DNA of 64,000 bases, taken from the IMG/VR virus record IMGVR_UViG_3300044535_000374, positions 1-64,000 of that record; one strand, given 5' to 3'. The position numbers and the translations under genes are program-made. The notes beneath the pieces were generated by a model. It saw nothing but the letters and a program-made list of their open reading frames with translations, did not search any database and was not told the DNA's origin. Shown here one piece after another: positions 28,744-43,012 of this stretch. This stretch comes from a virus. Numbering within the stretch: the stretch's first letter is position 1; each line of letters starts with the position of its first letter.

Positions 28744-28775
28744 CAAATCTAGTTATTATACCCTCATAAAACAAA
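28744..28775 (-). promoter_or_regulatory. Leftward promoter, TTTG-N20-TAGATTTG
   Basis: On the minus strand TTTG (28775-28772) is followed after 20 bases by TAGATTTG (28751-28744). This matches the Bacteroidota -33/-7 consensus. The start codon at 28720 is 23 bases downstream. It drives the leftward block at the strand switch and rules out the longer start at 28774. Confidence 0.75.
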
Positions 28776-28894
28776 TTTTCCTTTTTATTTTTAAAAAAAT
28801 TGAGAAACAGTTATTGATTGTCAAAGAGTTATGAGGTTTCCTTCTTATATATATTACATAGTATTTCTCATAGTATAGCAATAGCTTTACTTAA

Positions 28895-28922
28895 GTCCAG
28901 TTTAGTAAAGTAATAACTGGAC
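28895..28922. repeat. Inverted repeat GTCCAGTT / AACTGGAC
   Basis: GTCCAGTT at 28895-28902 and its exact complement AACTGGAC at 28915-28922, with a 12-base AT-rich loop. It lies 120 bases upstream of the leftward promoter. It could be an operator or a hairpin in a transcript; there is no T-run after it. Confidence 0.6.
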
Positions 28923-28934
28923 ATTCGTATATCA

Positions 28935-28976
28935 ATTCGTATAATTACGAATATATACGTATCGTAGTATTACGAT
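28935..28976. promoter_or_regulatory. Two tandem operator-like palindromes
   Basis: ATTCGTA-TAAT-TACGAAT (28935-28952) and ATCGTA-GTAT-TACGAT (28961-28976) share the same half-site family (TCGTA) and the same 4-base spacer. Their centres are 25 bases apart. A lone half site (ATTCGTAT) precedes them at 28923-28930. Paired symmetric sites like this usually bind a dimeric repressor or initiator. The binding protein is unknown. Confidence 0.6.
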
Positions 28977-29000
28977 TTACACGTGCAAAAGTGCAGTGTT

Positions 29001-29028
29001 GGGCGGCCCGCCCTATTAGGGGGCGGCC
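29001..29028. repeat. GC-rich direct repeat GGGCGGCC with palindrome
   Basis: GGGCGGCC occurs at 29001-29008 and again at 29021-29028. The first copy is part of a near-perfect palindrome GGGCGGCCCGCCC. This 40-base patch is far more GC-rich than anything around it in an AT-rich genome. It may be a protein-binding or cleavage site. Confidence 0.6.
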
Positions 29029-29226
29029 GACCCTGGCCCAGCAACTTGCAGTTCTGCAGACTGGGTGGGTCAATCTATGCCTTTGCAATCTGCACACACA
29101 TTTGCCCATTCTAGCCTATTAAGAATAACCCCATCAATCTGATAGCGTAGGGTTCCAGTATTAATGACAGGCCATGCCTAACCTGTGGGAAACTGCTTTG
29201 CCTGAGTGGGTAGGTCAATCCTAATG

Positions 29227-29241
29227 TAGGTTAGTAACCTA
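29227..29241. repeat. Palindrome TAGGTTAGTAACCTA
   Basis: Seven-base arms TAGGTTA and TAACCTA around a single central G, at 29227-29241. Perfect symmetry and its place in the gene-free control region suggest an operator. No known regulator can be named. Confidence 0.5.
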
Positions 29242-29358
29242 ATTCATTATCAATCAATGTGTTATAGTGTTATCAGATGCCTATGTAAGCCTGTATGCGT
29301 AACATTACCCTTTCCCCATGTGTATCTGTGTGCTATGATTCTGTCATGCTTACCTATC

Positions 29359-29610
29359 TCCTGTGTATTTTGTCCCTGTGTAATAATCCGAAATGACCTT
29401 TGCCTGTCTTCCTGTGTCTCACCTGTATGTGACTAAGTTCTTAGTTATAACTATTCTCTCCTGTGTTTTCTCCTGTATGCATTGTGTCCTGTTTCTTTCT
29501 ATTGTCTGTTAACAATCACATACTATATATGTCCCTGATTTTGTCCTGTGTTTTTCTTCCGCAAATATTTCCGCAATCGTTTGCAATTATCCCTGTTTGC
29601 TGTCCTGATA
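29359..29610 (+). repeat. TCCTGTGT repeat family (iteron-like)
   Basis: Exact TCCTGTGT occurs at 29359, 29410, 29459 and 29544, with CCCTGTGT at 29374. Variants differing in the last bases lie at 29421, 29471, 29487, 29591 and 29603. All are on the same strand within 250 bases, with irregular spacing. The surrounding strand is rich in pyrimidines and GT. This could be an iteron set, a primosome-assembly region or a protein-loading site. Confidence 0.6.
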
Positions 29611-29781
29611 ACTTTTTTTTAAATTTTTTTTCTGTTGCATCTGATTGATTCCCATTGTGTTATCTGTGTCTAAAAAAATATCCTGAAAATATTTGGGTGC
29701 AATTGATGTTTGTATACATACATATCATATCATTGTGGTGCCATAGTGCAACAAATCAATCAAAAACTAACAATCATTAGT

Positions 29782-30189
29782 ATGAAAAACAAATCAAAAT
29801 TAATCGCAGGTTTATCATTCACAAAGATATCAGGTAGTGTACCTGCATACGAAAGTGAGCAAACAGATTATTCTATTTGGCAACAGGCATCACATTCCAC
29901 ACATGGATACACATTGTGGATGGTATCAGCTAATCAAGATGCTAGTGCAGAATTTTGGGGAACATTCAATGAATGTGTCAAGTATCTAGATAGCAAATTA
30001 TCAGCAGATGCGCCTAGCTTTAATGTCAATGATTCTGTATCATTCACAGATGATTACACACATGAATTTGATGTATTCACTATCCAATCTATACAGGAGA
30101 ATGGCACAATAAAATTGCAGGAGATTCTAGGTACATTTTTTCCTAAGCAATTCACATTAGTACACAATTTTATCAATCATAAATCTTAA
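29782..30189 (+). CDS. Hypothetical protein, first rightward gene
   Basis: 135 residues from the ATG at 29782 (MKNKSKLIAGLSFTKIS). An upstream in-frame ATG at 29710 is inside control sequence and is less likely. Trp/Tyr-rich middle (YSIWQQASHSTHGYTLWMVS, AEFWGTFNECVKYL) followed by a small beta domain (DSVSFTDDYTHEFDVFTI). No membrane segment. As the first gene of the early block next to the amidoligase, it could be its partner or substrate, but nothing in the sequence proves this. Confidence 0.65.
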   Translation: MKNKSKLIAGLSFTKISGSVPAYESEQTDYSIWQQASHSTHGYTLWMVSANQDASAEFWGTFNECVKYLDSKLSADAPSFNVNDSVSFTDDYTHEFDVFTIQSIQENGTIKLQEILGTFFPKQFTLVHNFINHKS

Positions 30190-30193
30190 TCAA

Positions 30194-30385
30194 ATGAGAA
30201 ATTATTACACAATCAACATGGTATTATCAGTTCTATTGTCAATCGTGACAATGTTTATTCCTGTATTAGGTTTCATGACAATGGAACCAACAGCTGTCAA
30301 TCTAGCAATCATATGCTTTGTGTTTACGACAGGTGCATTAGGAAGTTACATGTACTATGACAATGCTCAAAAATCAATCAAATAA
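30194..30385 (+). CDS. Small membrane protein, two transmembrane segments
   Basis: 63 residues with two hydrophobic helices (about residues 9-28 and 35-54) joined by a short loop (MTMEPTA) and a short basic tail. It lies between the first early gene and the amidoligase gene. It could anchor a partner at the inner membrane or act in superinfection control. No family recognised. Confidence 0.6.
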   Translation: MRNYYTINMVLSVLLSIVTMFIPVLGFMTMEPTAVNLAIICFVFTTGALGSYMYYDNAQKSIK

Positions 30386-30413
30386 TTTAACCAATAACCA
30401 AAAATTCACAGCC

Positions 30414-32570
30414 ATGAATCAAGTTAAAAAACAACCTAGAAAATTCTCTGTATTGACACCTGTAAATGAGAGAAGCAGAAACAAATTTTTATTACCATTG
30501 GATGCATTCTCTAACAAGTACATCCAAAAGTTTGTAGTCATGACATCAAGTTCAATGACAAGTGATGCAGTCTATGATTACGAGAGCGTTTACTCATCAG
30601 GAACGAATAGTGAAAGCAGATATGCTAACATGTTCAGACTAGCTAAAATGAACAGCGGAAGAATAATTGTGCCACAATTGTATTCAACACATTCAGGTGG
30701 AAGCAGAATAAGATTAAAGCTAAATGATACAGAAATTCATATCAGCAGTTCACTATTTGATTTGCTAGTAAATGAATTCGGTATGAAGTATTACATTGAT
30801 GAAAACAGAGAGCATAACGGATACAAGATTAAAGTTATTGTTATCAGTGATGACATGATTGCACCTGATTTAACAGAGTCATTGGTGGAAGTGGGAAGAC
30901 TTGTAAAGGTTACAGATGACAGCCAAATTTGGGGAACAGATACATTGCTAGGTTATCATTATTCAGCATGGCATCCAAAGATTGCATCTAATTTCACAAA
31001 GTACATGGACAAGACTTTAGGTGCAGTTAACTTTGGATTTGAAGCAGAGAAGCAAGACTACACATTCAGGGACAGAGAGAATGCTATTAAATTAGCTTTT
31101 GAGACAGGATTTAAGAAAGAGAGAGATGGCAGTTTAGGTGATGGAGGATTTGAATTGATTTCACCTGTATTACCATTGAACAATGATGCAGTCATCAATG
31201 AAGTACTTGCACCTGTTAGGGATATATTGGATGCGGAAACTAGCGACAGATGTGGTGGTCACATCAATGTATCAATCAATGGTGAAAATTCTAGAGACAT
31301 CCTTAAGAAAGTGAAAGGAAGTTTACCAATATTCTATTCAATCTATGAGAAGCGTTTAAACAACAGCTATTGCCAAGCACAGCAGTTTGGCACATACCTT
31401 CGCTCACCTAGAAAGTACCAATCATTCTATGTGAAGAACAATGAGATTCTTGAATTCAGAATATTCCCTGCAATCAAGAGCAACACCATCCTTAAGAACA
31501 GAATTGATTTGATGCGCATAGTATTGAATGACCTGTATGGTAAGACACATAACAAGGTTATCCTTGAGATGGCTAAAAAGAATTCTAAGTTATACAATTT
31601 CATGTTGAATGTAGTGTGCAATGGCGACATGGATAAGTTCAAAAACAAGTTCAAGACATTCATCACATTATCAGCTAAGTACAAATGTGGTATCGTTACA
31701 ATTAACACGATTAAGAAAGTTGAGCAGATGATGAGCATGAGTATCATTACTCCTACAGAAACTACACAGGAACCTACAGAGACTACACAAGCACCTAGAG
31801 AAAGAGTATTCCATGTAGACTTACCTGATACGACATCCACATGGGTAACAGATGCAGTGACTGAATTATCAAACGATGATTCATACAGACAGGAGCGTTC
31901 TAACGATGTGAGAGATGGCAGTATTGATGGTGTGAACGAGGATGTTATTGTTACATCATTCGCTCAGAATGTAGAAAGCTACAGAGGACTATCATCAAGC
32001 GCTAGAACAGAATTGAATACAGCATTCCTTTCAGATGAAATTTATGTAAACAATATGAGAGCGACAAATGAACAGCTATGTCAATTCTTTGCGCCAAACA
32101 GCATGGTATCATTAGGCACACCATGTGAATACAGCAGTAACTTTAGTATCATGGTGAAGAAAGCATTAAATACTATTGGTGGTGTGATTAGCTCTGTATT
32201 AAACTATGAGACATTGCCTGTATCGGTTATTAATTCACAGACAGAAAGATTGTTTGATTCATGCAGAGACAATGATATGCAAGTATGTCAAACATATTCT
32301 CAGAGCGAGATGTCATTTTTCAACAGAATATTTGCAATGCTAATTACCACATCTAGATTCACAGATACAACAAACATGTGTTTCAGGGCTGAATTTAAGC
32401 TATCTACTTTGTCATCTGAAAGGTACTACATGAACTTTATCAGACACGAGGATGGCACATATATATGCGCTCTAGCTAAGAGACTAGATGGTAATAGATT
32501 CGTGTATATATTCAATGAACATGAATTGAGTCTAAACTTATTAACTGATTCATCTCAAAATCCTTTTTAA
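30414..32570 (+). CDS. Amidoligase-type (COOH-NH2 ligase) enzyme
   Basis: 718 residues from the ATG at 30414. An in-frame ATG at 30357 overlaps the previous gene and is disfavoured. The core carries the ordered motifs of the Amidoligase_2 family, a glutamine-synthetase-like fold: NFGFEAE (206-212), ERDGSLGDGGFELISP (236-251), CGGHINV (280-286) and LEFRIFP (346-352). Such enzymes make amide or isopeptide bonds using ATP. There is a 200-residue unknown N-terminal region and a 300-residue C-terminal region with a Thr/Glu/Pro linker near 450. A class II amidotransferase gene follows, which fits ammonia supply or paired chemistry. The substrate is unknown. Confidence 0.8.
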   Translation: MNQVKKQPRKFSVLTPVNERSRNKFLLPLDAFSNKYIQKFVVMTSSSMTSDAVYDYESVYSSGTNSESRYANMFRLAKMNSGRIIVPQLYSTHSGGSRIRLKLNDTEIHISSSLFDLLVNEFGMKYYIDENREHNGYKIKVIVISDDMIAPDLTESLVEVGRLVKVTDDSQIWGTDTLLGYHYSAWHPKIASNFTKYMDKTLGAVNFGFEAEKQDYTFRDRENAIKLAFETGFKKERDGSLGDGGFELISPVLPLNNDAVINEVLAPVRDILDAETSDRCGGHINVSINGENSRDILKKVKGSLPIFYSIYEKRLNNSYCQAQQFGTYLRSPRKYQSFYVKNNEILEFRIFPAIKSNTILKNRIDLMRIVLNDLYGKTHNKVILEMAKKNSKLYNFMLNVVCNGDMDKFKNKFKTFITLSAKYKCGIVTINTIKKVEQMMSMSIITPTETTQEPTETTQAPRERVFHVDLPDTTSTWVTDAVTELSNDDSYRQERSNDVRDGSIDGVNEDVIVTSFAQNVESYRGLSSSARTELNTAFLSDEIYVNNMRATNEQLCQFFAPNSMVSLGTPCEYSSNFSIMVKKALNTIGGVISSVLNYETLPVSVINSQTERLFDSCRDNDMQVCQTYSQSEMSFFNRIFAMLITTSRFTDTTNMCFRAEFKLSTLSSERYYMNFIRHEDGTYICALAKRLDGNRFVYIFNEHELSLNLLTDSSQNPF

Positions 32571-32581
32571 TTTTTCATGGC

Positions 32582-32629
32582 TGTAGGGGAAGCGACATAT
32601 CTATTCCTAGATTAATTTAATCCCCTACA
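32582..32629 (+). terminator. Long-loop inverted repeat after the amidoligase gene
   Basis: TGTAGGGGA (32582-32590) pairs exactly with TCCCCTACA (32621-32629) across a 30-base loop, and AATTTT follows. It lies between the amidoligase stop and the next promoter. It may be a weak terminator or a processing hairpin; the loop is longer than normal for a terminator. Confidence 0.45.
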
Positions 32630-32632
32630 AAT

Positions 32633-32663
32633 TTTGTCAAACAAAATATTATAACTAACTTTG
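32633..32663 (+). promoter_or_regulatory. Promoter TTTG-N19-TAACTTTG before the amidotransferase gene
   Basis: TTTG at 32633-32636 and TAACTTTG at 32656-32663 with a 19-base spacer match the Bacteroidota consensus exactly. The amidotransferase ATG is 23 bases further on. The gene can therefore be expressed independently of the amidoligase. Confidence 0.8.
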
Positions 32664-32686
32664 TAAACAATCAAATAATCAAAACT

Positions 32687-33694
32687 ATGTGTACATTCTT
32701 TGTAAAAAAACCTAAGCAAGTCTTAAAGCAAGACCATTTCAACACCATCATAGAAAACAATCCTCAAGGATTCGGATTCGTATACACCACAGGTGACAGG
32801 CTAGTCATCGTTAAGTCAGCAAAGCCTGATGCAAAGCAATTATGGAATAAGTATCAGGATGCTGTTGCTAAATATCCTCAGTCACATTTCATCGGTCATG
32901 GCAGGATTGCCACAGGCAGTAATGTAGACTATGAGAATACACACCCATTTCTTATCAACAAAGGTTTGGTATTCGTTCACAATGGTATCATCAGACAATT
33001 CCCATCAACAGCCAAGCGCAGTGACACATACCAATACATGGAGCAGGTATTACGCAAGTTACCTAGAGACTTTTACAAACAGAAGGCTATCATGGATTTG
33101 ATAGGCAGAGACATTGTAGGTAGCAAGTTTGCATTCCTGACTATTGATAATAAGGTATACATCGTAAACGAACATGCATGTGTTACAGATACAGAGACAG
33201 GCGTATTATTCAGCAACAGCAACTACAAGCCTAGCGAATGGTTAGATTATGGTGGTACTAAGATTCACAAGTACGATACCAAAAAGACTAACAAGTACAG
33301 CTATGATTGGGACAAGGGAGCTACACAAAGCAAGTTAGACTTTCATATTGACAGAGACTCAGCAGAAATTAAACATCAGGCAGGTGACTACATCCATTGC
33401 CTAGATTGTGATGATTGGGTATACAAGACATCATACGAGAAGAAGTTTGATTGTTGCACATCATGTGCTAAGGATTACGGATACCTTACATTGATGGGTA
33501 CAGAGACAGGACAATTTGAAAAAGAAGTTGAAGGATTGTACCATTGCGATGAATGTAATGTAAATGTGGCATCACACAGATACGATGGATTCCATCTATG
33601 TAGTGAATGCGAGAAGATGTACATAGGTGCTAAGCCTATATACTCAGAGATAGAGGAGTATAACAATTCATTTGATAACTATGAAAACATATAA
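32687..33694 (+). CDS. Class II glutamine amidotransferase with two C-terminal zinc ribbons
   Basis: 335 residues. The Ntn-type glutaminase is clear: Cys2 directly after Met as nucleophile, GHGRIATG (70-77), NTHPF (84-88) and FVHNGII (96-102). It would hydrolyse glutamine and release ammonia for a synthase partner. The C-terminal third has two zinc-binding units: Cys238/Cys241 with Cys257/Cys260, and Cys287/Cys290 with Cys305/Cys308. No synthase domain is fused, so the acceptor enzyme must be separate; the upstream amidoligase is the natural candidate. It has its own promoter. Zinc ribbons on a free glutaminase domain are unusual. Confidence 0.85.
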   Translation: MCTFFVKKPKQVLKQDHFNTIIENNPQGFGFVYTTGDRLVIVKSAKPDAKQLWNKYQDAVAKYPQSHFIGHGRIATGSNVDYENTHPFLINKGLVFVHNGIIRQFPSTAKRSDTYQYMEQVLRKLPRDFYKQKAIMDLIGRDIVGSKFAFLTIDNKVYIVNEHACVTDTETGVLFSNSNYKPSEWLDYGGTKIHKYDTKKTNKYSYDWDKGATQSKLDFHIDRDSAEIKHQAGDYIHCLDCDDWVYKTSYEKKFDCCTSCAKDYGYLTLMGTETGQFEKEVEGLYHCDECNVNVASHRYDGFHLCSECEKMYIGAKPIYSEIEEYNNSFDNYENI

Positions 33695-33696
33695 AC

Positions 33697-33900
33697 ATGG
33701 AAAAATTTTTAACAGAGCAACAGCAGAAAGTATTAACTATTGGTAAGTGGGACATAGCTCCCACACCAAAGTATCTTACACTATATCCTGAAGATTTTGT
33801 ACAAGACATTGAGTCATGGAACCAAGTATGTGACCAATTGAATGTACCTTATGATTCACCTTATGTACATATTTTATTCATCGCAACAAAAACCAATTAA
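33697..33900 (+). CDS. Hypothetical small protein
   Basis: 67 residues, starting two bases after the amidotransferase stop. Contains an aromatic middle (TPKYLTLYPEDFVQDIESWNQ). No motif recognised; no membrane segment. Likely cotranscribed with the amidotransferase. Confidence 0.55.
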   Translation: MEKFLTEQQQKVLTIGKWDIAPTPKYLTLYPEDFVQDIESWNQVCDQLNVPYDSPYVHILFIATKTN

Positions 33901-33901
33901 C

Positions 33902-34117
33902 ATGGACAAAGTAAATTTAATTAAGATTGATACCAAAGAACATTTTGAAGTATCAATGGATGAGAACAAGTATTATGCTACACATGAATACAATAATCAT
34001 GGACATGATAAGTGGTGGGTGTTTAGTGACATGGGAGTTCATGAGAATGATGTGGTGTATTTTTCTGTAGTGAATTTATGTAACAACAAGTATAAAAAAA
34101 TAAATCATATCGTATGA
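33902..34117 (+). CDS. Hypothetical small protein
   Basis: 71 residues from the ATG at 33902, one base after the previous stop; an upstream in-frame ATG at 33842 would overlap that gene. It is beta-rich with a KWWVFSDMGVHENDVVYFSVV segment and a His/Asn-rich EYNNHGHD stretch. No family recognised. Confidence 0.55.
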   Translation: MDKVNLIKIDTKEHFEVSMDENKYYATHEYNNHGHDKWWVFSDMGVHENDVVYFSVVNLCNNKYKKINHIV

Positions 34118-34416
34118 GCATGAGCATGACAGGTCAGGAAGTCCTGATGAATATACTAACTAAGATTGTAGTAGATGTAGCTATACAGAATGATGATGAC
34201 TACAATGATTTCATGGATGCTGTAATAACATCCATCCTGTATGTGGCTAAGACAGAACAACTATGGGATGATGCAGAGATACAGACAGCCATAACTATCA
34301 TCAATCATCGTGCTAAAGAGTTAATCAATACAATTGATTTTGATGAGGATGAGCATAAGCCTAACATCCAAGCAATAAACGATATAATCAACAGAGCATT
34401 TGACAATTTAAATTAA
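34114..34416 (+). CDS. Acidic helical hypothetical protein
   Basis: 100 residues, overlapping the previous stop as ATGA. Acidic and helical (NDDDYNDFMDAVITSIL, IDFDEDEHKPNIQAINDII). Further Met codons at positions 3 and 5 make the start slightly uncertain. Unknown function; its acidity recalls small DNA-mimic or inhibitor proteins, but there is no direct support. Confidence 0.55.
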   Translation: MSMSMTGQEVLMNILTKIVVDVAIQNDDDYNDFMDAVITSILYVAKTEQLWDDAEIQTAITIINHRAKELINTIDFDEDEHKPNIQAINDIINRAFDNLN

Positions 34417-34422
34417 AAAACA

Positions 34423-34620
34423 ATGAGCATATTAAAACAACAGGTATCAACATTCACAGATTTGACACCTAGAGAAAGACAGATATTTATTGCAGAATTA
34501 TATCACAATGCGTGGTATTCAGAAGATAGATATAAACAACTAGAGGAGTTATATAACCTATGGGTGAGTGACCCTATCAAAGAAAAAGCATTCTTAAACG
34601 AAATAAACGAAACATCATGA
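34423..34620 (+). CDS. Hypothetical small helical protein
   Basis: 65 residues; helical with an RERQIFIAELYHNAWYSEDRY stretch. It ends with an ATGA overlap to the zinc-finger gene that follows. Function unknown. Confidence 0.55.
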   Translation: MSILKQQVSTFTDLTPRERQIFIAELYHNAWYSEDRYKQLEELYNLWVSDPIKEKAFLNEINETS

Positions 34621-34805
34621 AACAAGCGCATGTACAAATCACAATCACATGTCCCACATGCAGTGGTGATGGATTCTATTTAGACTATGCAGGAAGTGAG
34701 GAGCAAGGTTTGGATTATGAGAAAGCATACGAATGTAAAGATTGCAAAGGAACAGGATTAATTAATAACACAACATACAACAATGGAGAATTTGAAAGGC
34801 GTTGA
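34617..34805 (+). CDS. DnaJ-like zinc-finger peptide
   Basis: 62 residues. Two CxxCxGxG motifs (CPTCSGDG at 12-19 and CKDCKGTG at 40-47) form one complete DnaJ-type zinc site. There is no J domain. Stand-alone fingers of this type occur in phage and host proteins that bind peptides or partner enzymes. It overlaps both neighbours. Its specific role is unknown. Confidence 0.6.
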   Translation: MKQAHVQITITCPTCSGDGFYLDYAGSEEQGLDYEKAYECKDCKGTGLINNTTYNNGEFERR

Positions 34806-35073
34806 ACTAATTGTCAGCATAGCATCACAGCTAACACTAGAAGCAGTTATGTCAAAAGACGAGCAGTTTAAAAAGGTAAGATGTTTACAAGCATCACATC
34901 TAATCAAAGGATGTAGTGATTTATCAGGTAAGAGCGTAATTGATTTGCTAGTATTAAGCAAAGCAATGACACTATCTATGAACGATGGCTATAGACAATT
35001 TGAAAGAGAGATGGAAGGTGAGGAAATTTTAAAAAACATATTTAAGGATGAAGAAAATAAAAAAGGTGATTGA
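34783..35073 (+). CDS. Hypothetical protein
   Basis: 96 residues, helical, with two Cys (KVRCLQASHLIKGCSDL) and an acidic C-terminus (FKDEENKKGD). It overlaps the zinc-finger gene by 23 bases and the next membrane peptide by 26 bases. Unknown function. Confidence 0.55.
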   Translation: MENLKGVELIVSIASQLTLEAVMSKDEQFKKVRCLQASHLIKGCSDLSGKSVIDLLVLSKAMTLSMNDGYRQFEREMEGEEILKNIFKDEENKKGD

Positions 35074-35200
35074 GGTTACAATAGCATTGGGTATTGGTGC
35101 GTTTCTATGGGACAAAGACATAAGCGCATCTGATAATATATGGATGATGATACCCATGTATTTCATATTCGGATTGATGTACTATTTCTTAAAACAATAA
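35048..35200 (+). CDS. Small membrane peptide (50 aa)
   Basis: 50 residues: basic N-terminus MKKIKKVIEV, one hydrophobic stretch TIALGIGAFLW, then a second IWMMIPMYFIFGLMYYFL near the end. Likely two membrane spans. The start overlaps the end of the preceding gene, supporting coupled translation. Confidence 0.5.
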   Translation: MKKIKKVIEVTIALGIGAFLWDKDISASDNIWMMIPMYFIFGLMYYFLKQ

Positions 35201-35227
35201 TTTTCATTAACCAAAAAATAAAAACAA

Positions 35228-35521
35228 ATGAAAAATCTGAGAACAAAAAATGGTTTACAAGTTAACCAAATCGGAGAGACAAAAGACCTAATTTTAGGTT
35301 TAGTAGCAGGACAAAAATCATTCCTAGCATGGAATAAGTCTGATGGCAAACAGCACCACAACAAGCATAGGAGCAAGTTTGACCTGATGTTTGAGGAACC
35401 TGTGAGCAATGAAAGGTTTGTGGTGGTTAAAAAATGGGGTAACAGGCTATCAGCTAATATCCTAGAAAGAGAGCCAAAGAAAACCAAGTCTGTAGTTAAA
35501 TGTATCAAAATTACAATCTAA
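35228..35521 (+). CDS. Basic hypothetical protein
   Basis: 97 residues, basic (KQHHNKHRSKFDL, EREPKKTKSVVKC), with short beta strands and no known motif. Its charge suggests nucleic-acid binding. Its stop overlaps the next ATG by one base. Confidence 0.55.
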   Translation: MKNLRTKNGLQVNQIGETKDLILGLVAGQKSFLAWNKSDGKQHHNKHRSKFDLMFEEPVSNERFVVVKKWGNRLSANILEREPKKTKSVVKCIKITI

Positions 35522-35928
35522 TGTCAGACAAAATCCAAAGGCTAATTGATGAGCTAAAGCAAGAATGCCTAAAGGATAATAAAAGATGTGTTGTCATCCT
35601 CAAGAAAATTGGGGATGATGACATTCATCAAAAAATTATTCACTATGTTGTCAATCGTATTACTCAAATTTATAATGTATCTGTGGAAGAAATCATTTCA
35701 TGGAGAAAATCATCAGATGCTAAGCAAGCAAAAAAGATGATAGTTTTTATCCTTATAAATAGGTACGCCATAAAAGTTTCCCATTTGGCTAACTATTTAG
35801 GAGTGAGCTGTCAATCAATTAGTTACATGGCATCTAACCCTAATTCAGTGTATGCGATTAATAATTATAAATTATTTGTGTCTAAAATAGAAGATGAATT
35901 AAGCAATGCATTAGATTTGCAATCTTAA
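35521..35928 (+). CDS. Helix-turn-helix protein resembling DnaA domain IV
   Basis: 135 residues from the ATG at 35521, which shares a base with the previous stop; an earlier ATG at 35500 is less likely. The C-terminal half VSVEEIISWRKSSDAKQAKKM then ANYLGVSCQSISYM resembles the DNA-binding domain IV of DnaA or an HTH of that class. The first 60 residues are helical. It could bind the replication origin or regulate early genes. The match is weaker than for the 39.8 kb protein. Confidence 0.5.
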   Translation: MSDKIQRLIDELKQECLKDNKRCVVILKKIGDDDIHQKIIHYVVNRITQIYNVSVEEIISWRKSSDAKQAKKMIVFILINRYAIKVSHLANYLGVSCQSISYMASNPNSVYAINNYKLFVSKIEDELSNALDLQS

Positions 35929-35937
35929 TTTTTTGAT

Positions 35938-36048
35938 ATGAATATAGACATGAACGACATTGAGCAGGTAAAAAAGGCATTGGCAATCCTAGAAGCACAA
36001 AGAGAGATTCTAATTAAACAACTAAGGAAACTAATTTATCAATCATGA
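35938..36048 (+). CDS. Tiny helical peptide (36 aa)
   Basis: 36 residues forming one heptad-like helix (NDIEQVKKALAILEAQREIL). The stop overlaps the next ATG (ATGA). Short but well packed between genes; coding is likely. Confidence 0.45.
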   Translation: MNIDMNDIEQVKKALAILEAQREILIKQLRKLIYQS

Positions 36049-36398
36049 AATCATTTACCGAAAGAGAGGTATTGCTACAGGTAAAACGAGTATACTCAAA
36101 GGATGAGGTCATTGCAGAGTTACATAGGCAGATAAAGGATTATGGTTTTCAGGTAGGCATTCTAGAATCAGAGATAGCAGAACTAAAGGATGAGAACGAA
36201 AAACTTCGTAAACTAGGCACCTTAAACAGACAGGAGGAGTACACTAAAAATATTCTAAATCAGTTAAAAGGGGAAAGAGAAAGGAAGAATAAGTTCAAAA
36301 GAAATTCCGAACTATGGATGACAAAGTACCATCAATTGCTTAATTTTCAAACCACATCACCACATCTACAACCATTGGACATAGATGATGATGAATAA
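36045..36398 (+). CDS. Coiled-coil protein
   Basis: 117 residues. A long coiled coil covers about residues 20-90 (LESEIAELKDENEKLRKLG, LNQLKGERERKNKF). It ends with an acidic tail DIDDDE. No enzyme motif. It may act as a dimeric adaptor; function unknown. Confidence 0.55.
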   Translation: MKSFTEREVLLQVKRVYSKDEVIAELHRQIKDYGFQVGILESEIAELKDENEKLRKLGTLNRQEEYTKNILNQLKGERERKNKFKRNSELWMTKYHQLLNFQTTSPHLQPLDIDDDE

Positions 36399-36409
36399 AA
36401 AAACAAACA

Positions 36410-37030
36410 ATGGTTTTAAATTCAAACATACCAAGTTTTAAAGGTGTAGTAAGGAAATCTTACTTTACGAAAGAAGATGCGGACATGAACGAGTATTACA
36501 ATGTGTATGTATTTGGCATCCAATCATGTGGAGGTAAGATACTTACATTCCATGTGTTAACTGATTCAGGCATGTTAAGGAGTAGAGTTCCAATATCAGA
36601 GATATACACTAGAGTTCCCACAAACGACATCCCATTCAACTACAAACAGCTATGGGATTGCTTTAGCGAGAATGTATCTGTTATTGAGTATGATTTCTTA
36701 GCTTATCACAGGTGTCAAGTAGTTTTAAGGGATGGCAGTAAGGTATGGGCTACATACATATTGACTATTGATTGGTATAACAATCCTTACAGCGATGAAC
36801 CTTCTGACTACAAATGCGGTCACTTACTTGAGTCTGATGATGGGTATCTCATGTGCATGCCTAACAACAGAATATTTTGGAAGGATAGCAATTGGGTTAC
36901 AAAGCAGTTACCTGAAGATTTAAAACAATTTAAGGTTGACACTAACCTAGATTCCGTTGAGAATCAATCAGATAAATGGATAGTAGAGGATACGAATTCC
37001 TTTTACTACGATATAATAGAAAACAAATAA
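36410..37030 (+). CDS. Hypothetical protein, aromatic and beta-rich
   Basis: 206 residues with many Tyr, Trp and Asp and alternating strands (GVVRKSYFTKEDADMNEYYN, WIVEDTNSFYYDI). No signal peptide. It is the largest unknown protein of the early small-gene cluster. No family recognised. Confidence 0.6.
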   Translation: MVLNSNIPSFKGVVRKSYFTKEDADMNEYYNVYVFGIQSCGGKILTFHVLTDSGMLRSRVPISEIYTRVPTNDIPFNYKQLWDCFSENVSVIEYDFLAYHRCQVVLRDGSKVWATYILTIDWYNNPYSDEPSDYKCGHLLESDDGYLMCMPNNRIFWKDSNWVTKQLPEDLKQFKVDTNLDSVENQSDKWIVEDTNSFYYDIIENK

Positions 37031-37033
37031 CCT

Positions 37034-37234
37034 ATGACACCAAAAGAAAAAGCAAAAGAATTATTTGATAAATATTTTGAGGTAACAAATAATTATTATC
37101 AAGCTAAAGAATGTGCATTAATAGCAGTAGATGAAATATTAGATTTAAAGCATATAGTAACATTAAGAAGGAATATGCACGAAATGGAATTAGAATATTG
37201 GATGGAAGTTAAACAAGAAATAGAAAACCTATAA
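37034..37234 (+). CDS. Small helical protein, conserved style
   Basis: 66 residues beginning TPKEKAKELFDKYFEV and continuing with KECALIAVDEIL. This KAKELxxK...AKxxALIxVDEIL pattern is frequent in short proteins of Bacteroidota phages. Role unknown. Confidence 0.6.
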   Translation: MTPKEKAKELFDKYFEVTNNYYQAKECALIAVDEILDLKHIVTLRRNMHEMELEYWMEVKQEIENL

Positions 37235-37250
37235 CCAAAACAAATAACCT

Positions 37251-37478
37251 ATGGATTGCGAAAATGGATGGAAAGGAAATTGCTGTTGTAATTGCACAAG
37301 ACAAATACCATTATTTAAACACCCAATGAATAAAGGAGAAGGTAAAGGAAGTATTTCAGAAAGTATGGGGTTTGCTTGTACTGCATTTTGGGATATGGAT
37401 AAGACAGAAGGAATGATATTTTTTGATAACCCACATGGAATATGCGAAATGCATAATAGAAAAAACCAAAATAAATAA
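37251..37478 (+). CDS. Cys-rich small protein
   Basis: 75 residues with a dense N-terminal Cys cluster (Cys3, Cys11, Cys12, Cys13, Cys15), Cys43 and a C-terminal CEMH. It probably binds a metal. The N-terminal pattern GNCCCNCTRQIPLFKHP recalls small phage proteins of unknown function that bind zinc. No enzyme motif. Confidence 0.6.
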   Translation: MDCENGWKGNCCCNCTRQIPLFKHPMNKGEGKGSISESMGFACTAFWDMDKTEGMIFFDNPHGICEMHNRKNQNK

Positions 37479-37481
37479 CAT

Positions 37482-37811
37482 ATGGAAAAGTCGTACTATG
37501 CTATTATACCTGCATCTGTCAGGTATGATAAGAAGCTAACGCCCAATTCTAAGCTATTGTATGGGGAAATCACAGCCCTATGCAATGAGAAAGGCTATTG
37601 TTGGGCAAATAACACATACTTTAGCACATTATACAAGGTATCTAACAGAACCATCACAAATTGGATTAACGAACTAAAAGGAGCAGGTCATATCATTGTA
37701 AACTATGAGAGGGCAGATGTAGAAGGATACTCAAAAAGGTATATTATGTTGGCTGATACAAGCATCCATGCTAAGCCAATGGGTAGGAAAAAATCTTCTA
37801 GTACCCCCTGA
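37482..37811 (+). CDS. Helix-turn-helix replication-type protein
   Basis: 109 residues. The start YYAIIPASVRYDKKLTPNSK followed by LLYGEITALCNEKGYCW and an HTH (TYFSTLYKVSNRTITNWINELKGAG) matches the HTH_36-type N-terminal domain found in phage and plasmid replication proteins. It ends at the first copy of a TACCCCC repeat array, and the helicase gene follows 140 bases later. It is therefore the natural candidate to bind that array. Confidence 0.7.
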   Translation: MEKSYYAIIPASVRYDKKLTPNSKLLYGEITALCNEKGYCWANNTYFSTLYKVSNRTITNWINELKGAGHIIVNYERADVEGYSKRYIMLADTSIHAKPMGRKKSSSTP

Positions 37812-37891
37812 AAATAATTTCTATACCCCCATGAAGAAATTTTCTATACCCCCCTGAAAAAAACTTCATACCCCCATGAAAAAATTTTCTA
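37802..37891 (+). repeat. Four iteron-like TACCCCC repeats, 22-23 bp apart
   Basis: TACCCCC begins at 37802, 37824, 37847 and 37869. Each copy is followed by a related TGAAAAAATTTTC-like segment. The spacing of 22, 23 and 22 bases is about two helical turns, so proteins bound at each would lie on one face of DNA. The first copy overlaps the end of the HTH gene. This is the usual form of replication iterons. Confidence 0.75.
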
Positions 37892-37895
37892 CCAT

Positions 37896-37942
37896 AATAA
37901 TACAATGAATAATACAAGGAATAATACATTAATAATAATACA
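37896..37942 (+). repeat. Four AT-rich AATAATACA repeats, unwinding-element-like
   Basis: AATAATACA occurs at 37896, 37908, 37920 and 37934. The first three are exactly 12 bases apart, the last 14. They lie directly after the iterons and end 9 bases before the helicase ATG. Tandem AT-rich 12- or 13-mers next to iterons are typical of DNA unwinding elements in replication origins. Confidence 0.7.
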
Positions 37943-37951
37943 TACTATACT

Positions 37952-39754
37952 ATGAGTAATACTATAACAGAGAACAATATTTTAGAGAGTTTAATAAGCA
38001 TTTATCCTAGTATGTTGAAGACTAATGATGTGAAATATATATCAGTAGCCAATGCCTTGACATGGATTAAGATAGGTAGATGGGCTGATAAGGTTTCTCA
38101 GGTTAAGAATGGTGTACTCAATAAGAAAGAACTTCCTGCAATTATATGGGGAGGTCAGTTCAAGGCAGGAGATAGAACTAACGAAGGTATCAGTCACTAC
38201 TCAGGGTTAGCTCCATTAGACTTTGACATGAAGGATTCTACAGATGAAGAGATACAGGATAAGATAGATATGCTAAAGGCAGACCCATTTATCTTAGCTA
38301 TCTGGCGTTCATCTTCTGGGAAAGGTATCCATTGCTTAATGAGAATACAATCACAGGAGGATTACTCAGCACATTACAGAGCTATTATCAGTAAGTATGA
38401 TGGCATTGACCCTGCATGTAGTAACATATCTAGATTATTATTTGTGAGCCATGACCCTGATATCCATGTGAATGAGGAGAGCTTAATATTCACAGATATA
38501 ATCAGAGAGGAGAGATTGATATTACCATCAGAGCCAACACTAGCTACTAAAACAGACTTTAGAAAGCTAGAGATGGTATGTAATCTATTCCTGAATGCTA
38601 AGGAAGGAGAGCGAAATCATAAGATGTTGAAGGCAGGAAGGTTACTTGGTGGATTCATAGCAGGTGGTTTAGTTCAGGAGGATATAGGCGTACAAGCCCT
38701 TTTAGGCGCATTAGAGACACGCAGGCAGGAATTAGGTGAAGATGACTACAGAGCCGCTAAAATCACTTTAAATAACGGATTAGAGCATGGCTTACTATCT
38801 CCTTTGGTAGAGATACAAGATGAGTTTATAAAGATGTCCCTTCAAGAGTCTATGAGAGAGGAGGATTTATATAAGTTCATACAGACAGAACAGGAAGGCT
38901 TAGACTTTCTTCTAAAGTACAAGAGAGGTGAGTTTGATAAAGGATTAGATTGTGGTTATCAAGAGTTAGACCCACACTTTAAGTTTATAAAGAAGGCGTT
39001 GACGGTAGTTTTAGGTCATGGGCATAGCGGTAAGACTTCTTTTGCGTTATGGTTTTTGAACTTGGCCGCTAGACTACACAATTGGAAATGGGCTGTTTAT
39101 TGTGGTGAGAATTCTGTTGAGAGCGTTAGATTGATTCTTAATCAATACTATCTAGGAAAGAGAATTGAAGATAGTAAAGAGGAGGAGATTATAAAATCTA
39201 ATAAGTGGGTAAGTAATAGATTCATCATCCTAAAGAATGAGGATTTACTTGAGCCGTATCAAGTGCTTGATTTAATTGATAAGGTTAGACAGGTGCATTC
39301 AATTGATGGTGCATTGATTGACCCATTCAATTATCTTAAGCTAGCAGGTAAGGAAAGATATAACGCTGTGATTGATGCGTATACTCAGTTCAGGAACTAC
39401 TCATTGAAGACAGGTATAAACCTTTGGTTAACAGCACATACGAATACCGAGTCTCAGAGAGAGGACAGGATGCCTACACCTGCACATGCAGAGATGGGTT
39501 CAATGCTATACAACAAGGCAGACCAATTCATATGCGTACACAGACACAGCTATGATGATGTGGATGGAGGTATAAAGAATAATGGATGTTCTGTTTATGT
39601 AGCTAAGACTGATAGAGACCAATTGTATGGATTAGTAAAAGGTAAATACAAAGAGCCTATTGAGTTCAGATACACACGTGTTGGATTCATTGACCAATAT
39701 GGACTATTCCCATTAGCATCGCATAACAATATACAATCTGAAATAAATTTCTAG
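37952..39754 (+). CDS. Primase-helicase: BT4734-like N-domain plus DnaB-type helicase
   Basis: 600 residues. The N-terminal 180 residues match the BT4734-like primase-associated domain: acidic LDFDMK (89-94), SSSGKGIHCLMR (120-131) and SNISRLLFVSHDP. The C-terminal RecA-like ATPase has Walker A GHGHSGKT (355-362), Walker B ALIDPFN (454-460) and LWLTAHTNTE. It would unwind and prime phage DNA. It starts at the edge of the iteron/AT-repeat cluster. Both core motifs look intact. No DNA polymerase is seen in the window, so replication probably uses the host polymerase or one outside it. Confidence 0.88.
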   Translation: MSNTITENNILESLISIYPSMLKTNDVKYISVANALTWIKIGRWADKVSQVKNGVLNKKELPAIIWGGQFKAGDRTNEGISHYSGLAPLDFDMKDSTDEEIQDKIDMLKADPFILAIWRSSSGKGIHCLMRIQSQEDYSAHYRAIISKYDGIDPACSNISRLLFVSHDPDIHVNEESLIFTDIIREERLILPSEPTLATKTDFRKLEMVCNLFLNAKEGERNHKMLKAGRLLGGFIAGGLVQEDIGVQALLGALETRRQELGEDDYRAAKITLNNGLEHGLLSPLVEIQDEFIKMSLQESMREEDLYKFIQTEQEGLDFLLKYKRGEFDKGLDCGYQELDPHFKFIKKALTVVLGHGHSGKTSFALWFLNLAARLHNWKWAVYCGENSVESVRLILNQYYLGKRIEDSKEEEIIKSNKWVSNRFIILKNEDLLEPYQVLDLIDKVRQVHSIDGALIDPFNYLKLAGKERYNAVIDAYTQFRNYSLKTGINLWLTAHTNTESQREDRMPTPAHAEMGSMLYNKADQFICVHRHSYDDVDGGIKNNGCSVYVAKTDRDQLYGLVKGKYKEPIEFRYTRVGFIDQYGLFPLASHNNIQSEINF

Positions 39755-39760
39755 ATATAT

Positions 39761-39791
39761 TTTGTTTGTATACAACATTTACTTAATTTTG
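39761..39791 (+). promoter_or_regulatory. Promoter TTTG-N19-TAATTTTG
   Basis: TTTG at 39761-39764 and TAATTTTG at 39784-39791, 19 bases apart, match the Bacteroidota consensus. The DnaA-domain-IV-like gene starts at 39803, 11 bases after the box. Confidence 0.75.
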
Positions 39792-39802
39792 AAAAAAAAG
39801 CG

Positions 39803-40396
39803 ATGATTAGTGAAAATGAGTACTTAGAAGAAGTTACTAAGCTGTACAAAAAAACACTAGAAGACAGGTTAATTAGCAGGTTTAAAAAAGAGTTCCATGA
39901 AAAGATAGGATACACGCCCCATGTTATTACTCTGTATGATGACAGGAGTTATTTGCCTAGAATAAAATTATATGAATTGGTAAATGTAATCAATGATATA
40001 ATGGAGCGTGAGTTTGGTAATAGAAAAATAAACAGGAAGCTAATTAGAATAACATCTATATTAAGAAGTAGAGATGCTACTGAGTATAGATTTATCTACT
40101 TTAAAATAGGTAGATTAATGGGCTATAACCTTAAGGAAATAGGTTCAGAGTTGCAATCAAAATTCTATAAAGGATATGACCATACAACTGTTATTCATGG
40201 GATAAAAACTTTTGATGACCTATTGTCAACTAGTCAATCATTTGCACTTAGGTATCAGCACGTAATTGATAACATTAGAAAAATATACGAAAAAGAAAAT
40301 GAAAATGATGGAAGTAAAGGGATTGGAGAACAGTATACCTGTGAGGAAAATATACTTGGACACGAAGCAGGAAGTGAGCTACAAGTCAATATGTGA
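39803..40396 (+). CDS. DnaA-domain-IV-like DNA-binding protein
   Basis: 197 residues. Residues about 70-155 match the DnaA C-terminal DNA-binding domain: RKLIRITSILRSRDATEYRF, FKIGRLMGYNLKEIGSEL and the signature YDHTTVIHGIKTF (DnaA consensus DHTTVLHA). There is no AAA+ ATPase domain, so it cannot replace full DnaA. It probably binds DnaA-box-like sites or regulates replication. It has its own promoter directly after the helicase gene. Confidence 0.7.
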   Translation: MISENEYLEEVTKLYKKTLEDRLISRFKKEFHEKIGYTPHVITLYDDRSYLPRIKLYELVNVINDIMEREFGNRKINRKLIRITSILRSRDATEYRFIYFKIGRLMGYNLKEIGSELQSKFYKGYDHTTVIHGIKTFDDLLSTSQSFALRYQHVIDNIRKIYEKENENDGSKGIGEQYTCEENILGHEAGSELQVNM

Positions 40397-40511
40397 TGCT
40401 AGTAGAAGAACAGGCATAAACCATGAGACTATTAAGAATTCATTAAACCCAATAAAACGAAAGAGGTTCATTGAAGAAAACAGAGAGTTCATATTCAGAA
40501 TAATAAAATAA
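40299..40511 (+). CDS. Small basic DNA-binding-like protein (NUMOD1-like)
   Basis: About 70 residues; the start is uncertain (ATG at 40299, 40305 or 40308; a further one at 40266). The segment VSYKSICDASRRTGINHETIKNSLN is a helix-turn-helix of the NUMOD1 type that accompanies homing endonucleases, but here without a nuclease. It overlaps the end of the DnaA-domain-like gene in another frame. It may be a remnant of a homing endonuclease or a small regulator. Confidence 0.5.
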   Translation: MKMMEVKGLENSIPVRKIYLDTKQEVSYKSICDASRRTGINHETIKNSLNPIKRKRFIEENREFIFRIIK

Positions 40512-40517
40512 ACACAA

Positions 40518-40643
40518 ATGAAAAACCTATTAAACACAAAGAAAGTAGCCATTGACATCGTAAAAGGATTTGGATTCCATGTAGTATATTGGGATTCTTG
40601 GCATATTATGATTGGGTGTTTTGTATTCACAATTGAAATCTAA
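40518..40643 (+). CDS. Tiny protein (41 aa)
   Basis: 41 residues starting MKNLLNTKKVAIDIVKGFG, hydrophobic towards the end (HIMIGCFVFTIEI). Gaps of six and four bases to its neighbours support coding. Unknown function. Confidence 0.45.
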   Translation: MKNLLNTKKVAIDIVKGFGFHVVYWDSWHIMIGCFVFTIEI

Positions 40644-40647
40644 GACT

Positions 40648-40776
40648 ATGAAACATCTTATAAAGAAAGCAGGACAACTATCATTTTTCCTTCTAGTATC
40701 TGTGCCATTGGCTTGTACCTTGTATTTGACAGCACATGTTATCTTTGAAGTTAAACGGATAATCAAGTCTATATGA
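40648..40776 (+). CDS. Small membrane peptide (42 aa)
   Basis: 42 residues with one clear transmembrane helix (SFFLLVSVPLACTLYLTA) flanked by basic ends. Overlaps the next gene as ATGA. Likely an inner-membrane peptide of unknown role. Confidence 0.5.
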   Translation: MKHLIKKAGQLSFFLLVSVPLACTLYLTAHVIFEVKRIIKSI

Positions 40777-41048
40777 AAATAAATTCAAAATATTTTTGGC
40801 TAATTATATGCATTGTGTTTTTGATAAGCTGTTACTCAGAAATGACTAGCAAAAAGCTAGAAGCTAAAATAGCTGAGCTAGAGGCTGAAAATAACAGGCT
40901 TATATCTGTAAACGATTCACTATTCAATGAGAATTTTGTTAACAGACAGATAATTAGCAGATATGAGATTGGCATTGACATGTACAAGGAACAGCACCCA
41001 AGAGAGGCTCTTGAAATATTAGAAATCATTTTAAATAAAACAGAATAA
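40773..41048 (+). CDS. Putative lipoprotein with coiled coil
   Basis: 91 residues. An N-terminal signal with lipobox-like end (FWLIICIVFLISC) is followed by a coiled coil (SKKLEAKIAELEAENNRLISV). The Cys at about residue 20 could be lipidated. An outer-membrane-anchored coiled coil resembles small spanin components, but it lies far from the lysis genes. Function uncertain. Confidence 0.55.
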   Translation: MKINSKYFWLIICIVFLISCYSEMTSKKLEAKIAELEAENNRLISVNDSLFNENFVNRQIISRYEIGIDMYKEQHPREALEILEIILNKTE

Positions 41049-41050
41049 TT

Positions 41051-41158
41051 ATGGAATGGCTTAAGTATCTACAAATAACACTAGCAGTAATATGTTGGAT
41101 TTTTATGGGAATCTATGTTTATCTAAGAGTAAAAGAAATTCGCAATGAACGTAAATAA
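41051..41158 (+). CDS. Tiny membrane peptide (35 aa)
   Basis: 35 residues with a single transmembrane helix (YLQITLAVICWIFMGIYVYL) and a basic tail. Overlaps the next gene by 14 bases. Unknown role. Confidence 0.45.
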   Translation: MEWLKYLQITLAVICWIFMGIYVYLRVKEIRNERK

Positions 41159-41459
41159 AATAGGAGCAGAAATAGCGTCTCTAATGAGACTGATGAAAGC
41201 ATCAGCTTTATATGCAGAAAGCGTAAGGCAGTATCCGATATCTACAGAGTACAAGAATATATGTTACTCAATTATAAAGGATTATAACAAGTTATCTAAC
41301 GCAATTAGGTTTATGAATCCTGGGGCTAAGGCGTTAATAGAGTCAGATATGGAAGATGATAGAGTTCATTACATATCGGAGGTGGTTTTATTGATGAGTC
41401 TAGTCACAGAAGAAGATTGTAAGGATATATTAGAATCTTTGAAAAAATACATAGATTAA
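41145..41459 (+). CDS. Hypothetical helical protein
   Basis: 104 residues, all-helical (IASLMRLMKASALYAESVRQ, VLLMSLVTEEDCKDILESL). No motif recognised. Last gene before the promoter at 41460. Confidence 0.55.
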   Translation: MNVNKIGAEIASLMRLMKASALYAESVRQYPISTEYKNICYSIIKDYNKLSNAIRFMNPGAKALIESDMEDDRVHYISEVVLLMSLVTEEDCKDILESLKKYID

Positions 41460-41491
41460 TTTGGATGTTTACAATCAAGTAACTATATTTG
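41460..41491 (+). promoter_or_regulatory. Promoter TTTG-N20-TATATTTG before the recombination genes
   Basis: TTTG at 41460-41463 and TATATTTG at 41484-41491, 20 bases apart. The DUF3310-like gene starts at 41511. It drives the DUF3310-ERF-exonuclease unit. Confidence 0.75.
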
Positions 41492-41510
41492 TATACCTAA
41501 ACCAAAAGCT

Positions 41511-41750
41511 ATGATGTTTTTTGATGAAAATGAACAAATAACACCAACAAAGGTACAAGTAGGAGGAACGCATTACAATAAAATGAAGATTCAGCCTATT
41601 GAGTTTATATACGAGAACAATATACCATACATGGAGGCAAATGTTATCAAGTATGTATGCAGACACAAGTCTAAGAATGGGTTGCAGGATTTAGAGAAGG
41701 CAAAGCACTATATTGATTTATTAATTGAGAAAGAATATAAAACCAAGTAA
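41511..41750 (+). CDS. DUF3310-type protein
   Basis: 79 residues. The pattern GGTHYNKMKIQPIEFIYENN, EANVIKYVCRHKSKNG and DLEKAKHYIDLLI matches DUF3310, a short family widespread in phages and often placed with nucleotide or recombination genes. Biochemical role is unproven. The stop adjoins the next ATG directly. Confidence 0.85.
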   Translation: MMFFDENEQITPTKVQVGGTHYNKMKIQPIEFIYENNIPYMEANVIKYVCRHKSKNGLQDLEKAKHYIDLLIEKEYKTK

Positions 41751-42955: not shown

Positions 42956-42979
42956 GTAGAAAATGTTAATGTTTGTGGG

Positions 42980-42987: not shown

Positions 42988-43012
42988 TAAACGAACAAAT
43001 ACAGCAAACAAG

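What the first reader, a model, noticed from the sequence alone, without database searches (positions are those of the whole stretch)
29782..33694. Early phage unit with an amidoligase and a class II glutamine amidotransferase
Seen: an Amidoligase_2-type enzyme (motifs GFEAE, DGSL..FELISP, CGGHI, LEFRIF) next to a free-standing Ntn glutaminase (Cys2, GHGRIATG, VHNGII) carrying two zinc ribbons. Known: amidoligases of this fold form amide or isopeptide bonds and have been predicted to modify peptides or proteins, sometimes next to amidotransferases. Inferred: at the start of the early block, the pair could make an amide-bearing modification of a host protein, cell-wall peptide or small molecule during takeover. 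The zinc ribbons could target it. The 135-residue gene and the two-span membrane protein before it are candidate partners. The pair has two separate promoter regions.
Basis: partly seen in the sequence, partly recalled or inferred. Interest (0 to 1): 0.8.

Follow-up and report, generated by a model that had tools for sequence, protein, structure and literature searches.

The report
Phage amidoligase and glutaminase gene pair
A virus of (probably) Bacteroidota bacteria carries two neighbouring genes for an amide-bond-forming enzyme and a glutamine-splitting enzyme; the pair is real, ancient and inherited together in dozens of phages, but pairs of this kind were already described in other phages and their target molecule is still unknown.

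Summary
The 718-residue protein (30414-32570) is a divergent amidoligase. It scores below the Pfam cut-off for PF12224. But a profile comparison with five named phage amidoligases gives 98% probability (E 3e-13), and its predicted fold matches glutamine-synthetase-like ligases. The 335-residue protein (32687-33694) is a class II glutaminase with all catalytic residues and two CxxC-pair zinc ribbons. The genome is a complete circle of about 67,084 bases with no gamma-glutamyl cyclotransferase or COOH-NH2 ligase.

The pair is a conserved module. In all 59 distinct viral loci with enough flank, a class II glutaminase lies downstream on the same strand, usually fused to a gamma-glutamyl cyclotransferase. 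The two gene trees agree (Mantel r 0.973). Three related phages keep a hairpin terminator and a Bacteroidota-type promoter between the genes, so "two promoters" holds. The 135-residue and membrane genes are not conserved partners.

Amidoligase-amidotransferase pairs are already published (phiEco32, LUZ24-like phages, tf, Marvin, OM43 phages), so this is a new member of a known kind. Most likely the glutaminase supplies ammonia to, or acts on the gamma-glutamyl product of, the ATP-using amidoligase. The target is unknown; the literature's guess is the cell wall.

The parts
30414..32570 (+). Divergent amidoligase (718 aa); GS-like catalytic core about residues 190-442; variable N-terminal (1-190) and C-terminal (443-718) extensions
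32687..33694 (+). Class II (Ntn) glutamine amidotransferase-like glutaminase (335 aa), residues 1-190, with two C-terminal CxxC-pair zinc ribbons (C238/241-C257/260, C287/290-C305/308)
32582..32631 (+). Terminator-like hairpin between the two genes (GTAGGGGA...TCCCCTAC; MFE -19.3 kcal/mol for 32571-32640, z -3.0), stem kept with different bases in L006 and followed by a T-run in L006/L007
32633..32663 (+). Bacteroidota-type promoter for the glutaminase gene: TTTG-N19-TAACTTTG, conserved in L006 and L007
34114..34416 (+). 100-aa protein of unknown function downstream, kept in L006 (52%) and L007 (48%): conserved neighbour, possibly of the same transcript as the glutaminase
29782..30189 (+). 135-aa unknown protein upstream; only its last 56 residues match (64%) in the closest phage L001, absent from L006/L007: probably not a partner
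30194..30385 (+). 63-aa two-span membrane protein upstream; kept in L001 (95%), absent from L006/L007: probably not a required partner

Best explanation
This is a two-gene phage amide-forming module. The amidoligase uses ATP to activate a carboxylate (as glutamine synthetase and gamma-glutamyl ligases do) and joins it to an amine or ammonia. The class II glutaminase splits glutamine with its N-terminal cysteine and most likely feeds the released ammonia, in trans, to the amidoligase, so the two act as a split glutamine-dependent amide synthetase. Zinc ribbons, carried on either subunit in different phages, most likely dock the enzyme on its target or hold the two subunits together. Shown here by computation: fold family, catalytic residues, conservation, co-inheritance and separate transcription signals. 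Inferred: the reactions, the ammonia hand-over, complex formation and the role of the ribbons. The target is not determined; a host cell-wall peptide or host protein is the leading guess from the literature.
For: Amidoligase fold: the eleven best PDB matches are all GS-like enzymes (gamma-glutamylmethylamide synthetase 9qur, Dop 4b0r, plant glutamate-cysteine ligase 2gwc, glutamine synthetase 4is4, YbdK 1r8g), and most named matches at E<=1e-3 in the viral library are phage amidoligases, including tf and CW02. Profile comparison with phiEco32 gp84, UFV-P2 ORF23, Marvin gp105, MEP402 gp06 and UOF81161: 98%, E 3e-13. Glutaminase fold: GlmS glutaminase domain 1xff E 1.2e-7, EgtC, PurF, with C2, R73, T76, N99, G100, D113 invariant. 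Linkage: a glutaminase lies downstream on the same strand in 59 of 69 distinct loci, and the other 10 have at most 1,081 bases of downstream sequence; gaps are as small as 2-5 bases in some phages; Mantel r 0.973, 0 of 2000 permutations. Ribbons sit on the glutaminase in 48 of 60 pairs and on the amidoligase in 2 pairs whose glutaminase has none, and on the amidoligase in MEP402 and MW202733. Purifying selection.
Against: In this clade a hairpin and a promoter separate the two genes, so they need not be made together or in equal amounts. In most GGACT-type relatives the glutaminase is 1-5 kb away. Co-inheritance alone does not show physical contact. The fused cyclotransferase of many relatives points as well to gamma-glutamyl chemistry as to ammonia supply. 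No complex could be modelled.
Confidence: 0.5

Rival explanations
1. Gamma-glutamyl attach-and-release pair: the amidoligase adds a gamma-glutamyl group to an amine, and the Ntn enzyme (with the cyclotransferase in relatives) takes gamma-glutamyl groups off again, as EgtA/EgtC in ergothioneine synthesis or BtrJ/BtrG in butirosin synthesis (both pairs from general knowledge).
For: EgtC (an Ntn gamma-glutamyl hydrolase) is among the best fold matches and a weak NCBIfam match. In most relatives the same protein carries a gamma-glutamyl cyclotransferase domain, PF06094, E down to 3e-23. The amidoligase fold matches are mostly gamma-glutamyl ligases.
Against: The window genome has no cyclotransferase. 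Adding and removing the same group needs an intermediate step, and no other enzyme of a pathway was recognised in the genome. The glutamine-binding Arg and Asp are conserved, but these bind any gamma-glutamyl group and do not discriminate.
Confidence: 0.25
2. Cell-wall modification cassette (a claim about the target, compatible with either chemistry): the pair puts unusual amide or isopeptide links on peptidoglycan side chains to block superinfection, as proposed for phiEco32 and PSA-HP1.
For: Published proposal for related cassettes (PMC5498523, PMC10580990). The same enzyme classes are found next to replication genes there and here.
Against: No experimental support was found in the papers read. 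The cytoplasmic early location fits proteins or small molecules as well. The other enzymes of the published cassette (COOH-NH2 ligase, cyclotransferase) are missing here.
Confidence: 0.2
3. The two genes are neighbours without a shared reaction: the glutaminase is a free enzyme (for example glutamine or gamma-glutamyl scavenging) and the amidoligase works alone with host ammonia or an amine.
For: Terminator and promoter between the genes; distances of 1-5 kb in many relatives.
Against: A glutaminase in every one of 59 loci with enough flank, near-identical tree shapes, and the same combination in named phages of other families.
Confidence: 0.07
4. DNA hypermodification: the pair decorates a phage DNA base with an amide, like the glutaminase-QueC route to 7-deazaguanines (general knowledge).
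For: Class II glutaminases take part in some phage DNA modification routes (general knowledge); zinc ribbons often bind nucleic acids.
Against: No base-modification, deazapurine or nucleotide-hydroxylating family was found among 54 other proteins of the genome, which is complete.
Confidence: 0.03

Closest known systems
Mycobacterium phage Marvin gp105-gp106 and Methylophilales phage MEP402 gp06-gp07 (amidoligase + class II glutaminase)
   Same: Two genes, same order and strand, adjacent or nearly so; amidoligase with the same GxExE, DGS, E, H, R, ExR motifs; free-standing class II glutaminase; zinc ribbon(s) on one or both partners
   Different: Overall identity is low (glutaminase about 29%). 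Ribbons sit on the amidoligase in MEP402 and on both in Marvin. Hosts are other bacteria.
phiEco32 / LUZ24-like (UFV-P2, tf) / PSA-HP1 amidoligase cassettes
   Same: Amidoligase_2 enzyme plus class II glutaminase in the early or replication region (PMC3890496, PMC5498523)
   Different: Those cassettes add an ATP-grasp ligase, a COOH-NH2 ligase and a separate cyclotransferase; the cyclotransferase and COOH-NH2 ligase are absent from the whole window genome, and no ATP-grasp family was seen among 54 other proteins.
MW202828.1 (podovirus of Manatee Spring) UOF82541-UOF82491 and the GGACT-type viral loci L027-L086
   Same: Homologous amidoligase (27.6% over 197 residues) followed by a homologous glutaminase domain
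   Different: The glutaminase is fused to a gamma-glutamyl cyclotransferase; in most of these loci the amidoligase is short (about 300 aa) and the glutaminase 1-5 kb downstream.
GlmS glutaminase domain and EgtC (Ntn class II)
   Same: Fold and catalytic residues
   Different: No isomerase domain as in GlmS; zinc ribbons added; substrate unknown.

Membership tests
Amidoligase superfamily (Pfam PF12224 Amidoligase_2) | Score above Pfam's curated cut-off (22 bits) | tested here: not met
   14.8 bits, E 0.026; relatives L006 15.7, L007 18.6. By Pfam's own rule it is not a PF12224 member. MEP402 gp06, called amidoligase in print, and Marvin gp105 also fall short (19.6, 19.5).
Amidoligase superfamily (Pfam PF12224 Amidoligase_2) | Profile-level homology to accepted members | tested here: met
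   hhalign of 46 homologues with five named phage amidoligases: 98.0%, E 3e-13, all motifs aligned
Amidoligase superfamily (Pfam PF12224 Amidoligase_2) | Conserved acidic, His and Arg catalytic motifs (GxExE, DGS..E, CGxH, ExR) | tested here: met
   Invariant in 46 of 46 homologues (the G of DGS varies) and, apart from the CG before the His, in the five named ones
Glutamine-synthetase-like COOH-NH2 ligase fold | Three-dimensional fold | tested here: met
   AlphaFold core 190-442 pLDDT mostly 82-98; the eleven best PDB matches are all GS-like enzymes, best E 2.6e-5, prob 0.99; TM-scores are low because the whole 718-residue model was searched
Glutamine-synthetase-like COOH-NH2 ligase fold | ATP-dependent amide or isopeptide formation | not testable with these tools
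   Needs enzyme assay
Class II glutamine amidotransferase (GATase_4/GATase_6) | Cys at position 2, Arg and Asp for the glutamine backbone, Asn-Gly oxyanion hole | tested here: met
   C2, R73, N99-G100, D113 invariant in 28 of 28
Class II glutamine amidotransferase (GATase_4/GATase_6) | Score above Pfam's curated cut-off (PF13230: 23 bits) | tested here: not met
   22.7 bits, just short; orthologues L006 24.0 and L007 24.8 pass
Class II glutamine amidotransferase (GATase_4/GATase_6) | Ntn glutaminase fold | tested here: met
   GlmS glutaminase 1xff E 1.2e-7, EgtC, PurF, prob 1.00
Class II glutamine amidotransferase (GATase_4/GATase_6) | A synthase partner that uses the ammonia | tested here: inconclusive
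   No synthase domain in the same chain; the amidoligase is the constant neighbour but physical coupling is not shown
phiEco32-type amidoligase cassette | Amidoligase together with class II glutaminase | tested here: met
phiEco32-type amidoligase cassette | Also ATP-grasp ligase, COOH-NH2 ligase and gamma-glutamyl cyclotransferase | tested here: not met
   No PF06094 or PF14395 in the genome record; no ATP-grasp family among 54 other proteins. It is not this full cassette; it shares only the core pair.

The most novel reading that the evidence does not exclude
A phage-only split enzyme, glutaminase plus amidoligase, that puts an amide on a host macromolecule during takeover, with exchangeable zinc ribbons (on either subunit) recruiting it to that target; the gamma-glutamyl cyclotransferase of sister lineages would be an eraser of the same mark.
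Probability: 0.15. Interest if true: 0.75.

Novelty: new member of a known kind. Interest (0 to 1): 0.4.

Why it matters
Amidoligase-glutaminase pairs have been predicted in phages since 2009, and I found no published function. This genome carries a reduced version (two enzymes, no cyclotransferase or COOH-NH2 ligase), which makes it a convenient set to express and test. The survey here shows that the pair is inherited as a unit across many phages and splits cleanly into a zinc-ribbon type and a cyclotransferase-fused type, which narrows the possible chemistry to gamma-glutamyl or amide transfer.

Tried and rejected
Megablast of 29000-41000 against named phages: no match. PDB sequence search with the amidoligase profile: no match, so fold search was used. 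Two scans of bacterial and archaeal genomes for the amidoligase: no relative; degenerate patterns can miss distant ones, so this is only weak evidence that the family is confined to phages. PADLOC: no match for either protein. Considered and rejected: alternative genetic code (searches show no gain for these genes), DNA hypermodification (no such genes), and the 135-residue and membrane genes as partners. The palindrome TTTTGTCAAACAAAA over the -33 box is not repeated elsewhere in the window beyond chance, so no operator is claimed. The 2009 Iyer paper and the Marvin paper are not held and could not be read.
Full report
WHAT IS THERE. The window is bases 1-64000 of a 67,211-base virus record. 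Its first 127 bases are repeated at its end, so the genome is most likely a complete circle of about 67,084 bases. Genes up to 28,774 run on the minus strand (terminase, structural proteins). A non-coding stretch of about 1 kb follows. From 29,782 to 45,029 the genes run on the plus strand and include a primase/helicase, ERF recombinase and nucleases. That this is the early block is inferred from this layout. TAnnTTTG boxes are found 24 times in 70 upstream regions against about 6 expected, and the primase carries a BT4734-like N-terminal domain. Both point to a Bacteroidota host (inference from known promoter types).

THE AMIDOLIGASE. 30414-32570 gives 718 residues. Single-sequence Pfam search is weak (PF12224, 14.8 bits, E 0.026, cut-off 22), and only 2 of 46 homologues reach even E 0.01. 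Three further tests nevertheless place it. First, a profile of 46 homologues aligns with five named phage amidoligases at 98% probability, E 3e-13, through all motifs. Second, the AlphaFold core (190-442, pLDDT mostly 82-98) finds only glutamine-synthetase-like enzymes among its best eleven PDB matches. Overall TM-scores are low because 315 residues of the model have pLDDT below 50. Third, the viral library returns phage amidoligases, including tf, CW02, Vp_R1 and the Marvin-group protein. Catalytic-type positions are invariant in 46 of 46. The core is under strong purifying selection (dN/dS 0.05), while the C-terminal extension is much less constrained (0.58).

THE GLUTAMINASE. 32687-33694 gives 335 residues. 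It is a class II Ntn domain (GATase_4, 22.7 bits against a cut-off of 23, with orthologues just above it). Its fold matches the GlmS glutaminase domain, EgtC and PurF. Cys2, R73, T76, N99-G100 and D113 are invariant. Two CxxC-pair ribbons follow. They are conserved in the two diverged relatives, but their fold is not confirmed.

THE PAIR AS A UNIT. L006 and L007 keep both genes (amidoligase 38 and 37%, glutaminase 58 and 56%). A profile search of viral contigs for the amidoligase alone brought in 78 loci. After removing near-duplicates, 59 of 69 have the glutaminase downstream on the same strand; the other ten end within 1,081 bases. The loci listed there were brought in by the amidoligase search, apart from L006 and L007, so this is not circular. 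Distances run from 2 to 4,875 bases. The trees of the two proteins agree closely (58 pairs, Mantel r 0.973, best of 2000 permutations 0.315), and the amidoligase tree splits into one clade whose glutaminases carry only ribbons (the window is here) and one whose glutaminases are fused to a gamma-glutamyl cyclotransferase. Ribbons are on the glutaminase in 48 of 60 pairs and on the amidoligase in two pairs whose glutaminase has none. In named phages they sit on the amidoligase (MEP402, MW202733) or on both (Marvin). This exchange fits an accessory domain serving one complex, but it is an inference.

TRANSCRIPTION. The 116 bases between the two genes hold a hairpin (GTAGGGGA...TCCCCTAC, MFE -19.3, z -3.0) whose stem is kept in L006 and L007, in L006 with other bases, and there followed by a run of T. 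Alone, the L006 and L007 hairpins are only modestly better than shuffles (z -1.7 and -1.5). Then comes TTTG-N19-TAACTTTG, conserved although the amidoligases are only 38% identical. Other relatives have gaps of only 2-5 bases, so separate transcription is a feature of this clade.

PROPOSED PARTNERS. The 63-residue membrane protein is kept in the close phage L001 (95%) and the 135-residue protein only in its last 56 residues (64%); neither is found in L006 or L007. They are not required partners. The 100-residue protein at 34114-34416 and the 65-residue one at 34423-34620 are kept in all of them and are better candidates, with no known family for the former.

MECHANISM. From the folds, the amidoligase should activate a carboxylate with ATP and form an amide, and the glutaminase should release ammonia from glutamine or hydrolyse a gamma-glutamyl amide (established knowledge of these families). 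The most economical reading is a split glutamine-dependent amide synthetase (about 50%). The cyclotransferase of the sister clade keeps a gamma-glutamyl attach-and-release cycle open (about 25%). The target is unknown. The cell-wall idea is the published guess (PMC5498523, PMC10580990). The other enzymes of those cassettes, the cyclotransferase and COOH-NH2 ligase, are absent here, and no ATP-grasp family was seen. No DNA-modification genes were found.

KNOWN OR NEW. The combination is on record: phiEco32 gp83-gp84, UFV-P2 (PMC3890496), tf (PMC3517423), PSA-HP1 and relatives (PMC5498523), MEP401/402 and more than 30 metagenome relatives (PMC10580990), and Marvin. The window is a new, divergent, two-gene member. 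The co-inheritance statistics and the ribbon/cyclotransferase split are new only as far as the papers searched here go.

Noticed in passing
28775-29781: One kilobase of non-coding DNA between the divergent gene blocks, with a G+C-rich inverted-repeat stretch (TGGGCGGCCCGCCC...GGGGGCGGCCGACCC, about 29000-29045) and many CCTGTGT/TCCTGT-like words from about 29340 to 29660; could be an origin or control region.
   Followed up: no
window, upstream of minus-strand genes (e.g. 8266, 10493, 17365, 22623, 56644, 57517, 61320): TAnnTTTG (often TAACTTTG or TATCTTTG) lies close to many late-gene starts but mostly without the TTTG -33 box seen before some plus-strand genes (32687, 39803, 41511), suggesting two promoter classes.
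   Followed up: partly
L027-L086 (GGACT-type loci), L010: These phages of about 60 kb also carry GroEL- and GroES-like genes a few genes upstream on the opposite strand (45 and 39 of 71 loci) and a conserved 212-aa protein of no known Pfam family immediately before the amidoligase (45 loci).
   Followed up: partly
L014, L015, L024, L051: Two amidoligase genes flank or lie near a single glutaminase gene, so the module has been duplicated on the amidoligase side.
   Followed up: no
50227-51873 (-): 548-aa protein on the minus strand near the lysis region; a Cohesin domain (PF00963, E 3e-7) was found among the scanned proteins and this one is the likely bearer.
   Followed up: no
34617-34805 (+): 62-aa DnaJ-type CxxCxGxG zinc-binding protein shortly downstream of the pair, weakly kept in L006/L007.
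   Followed up: no
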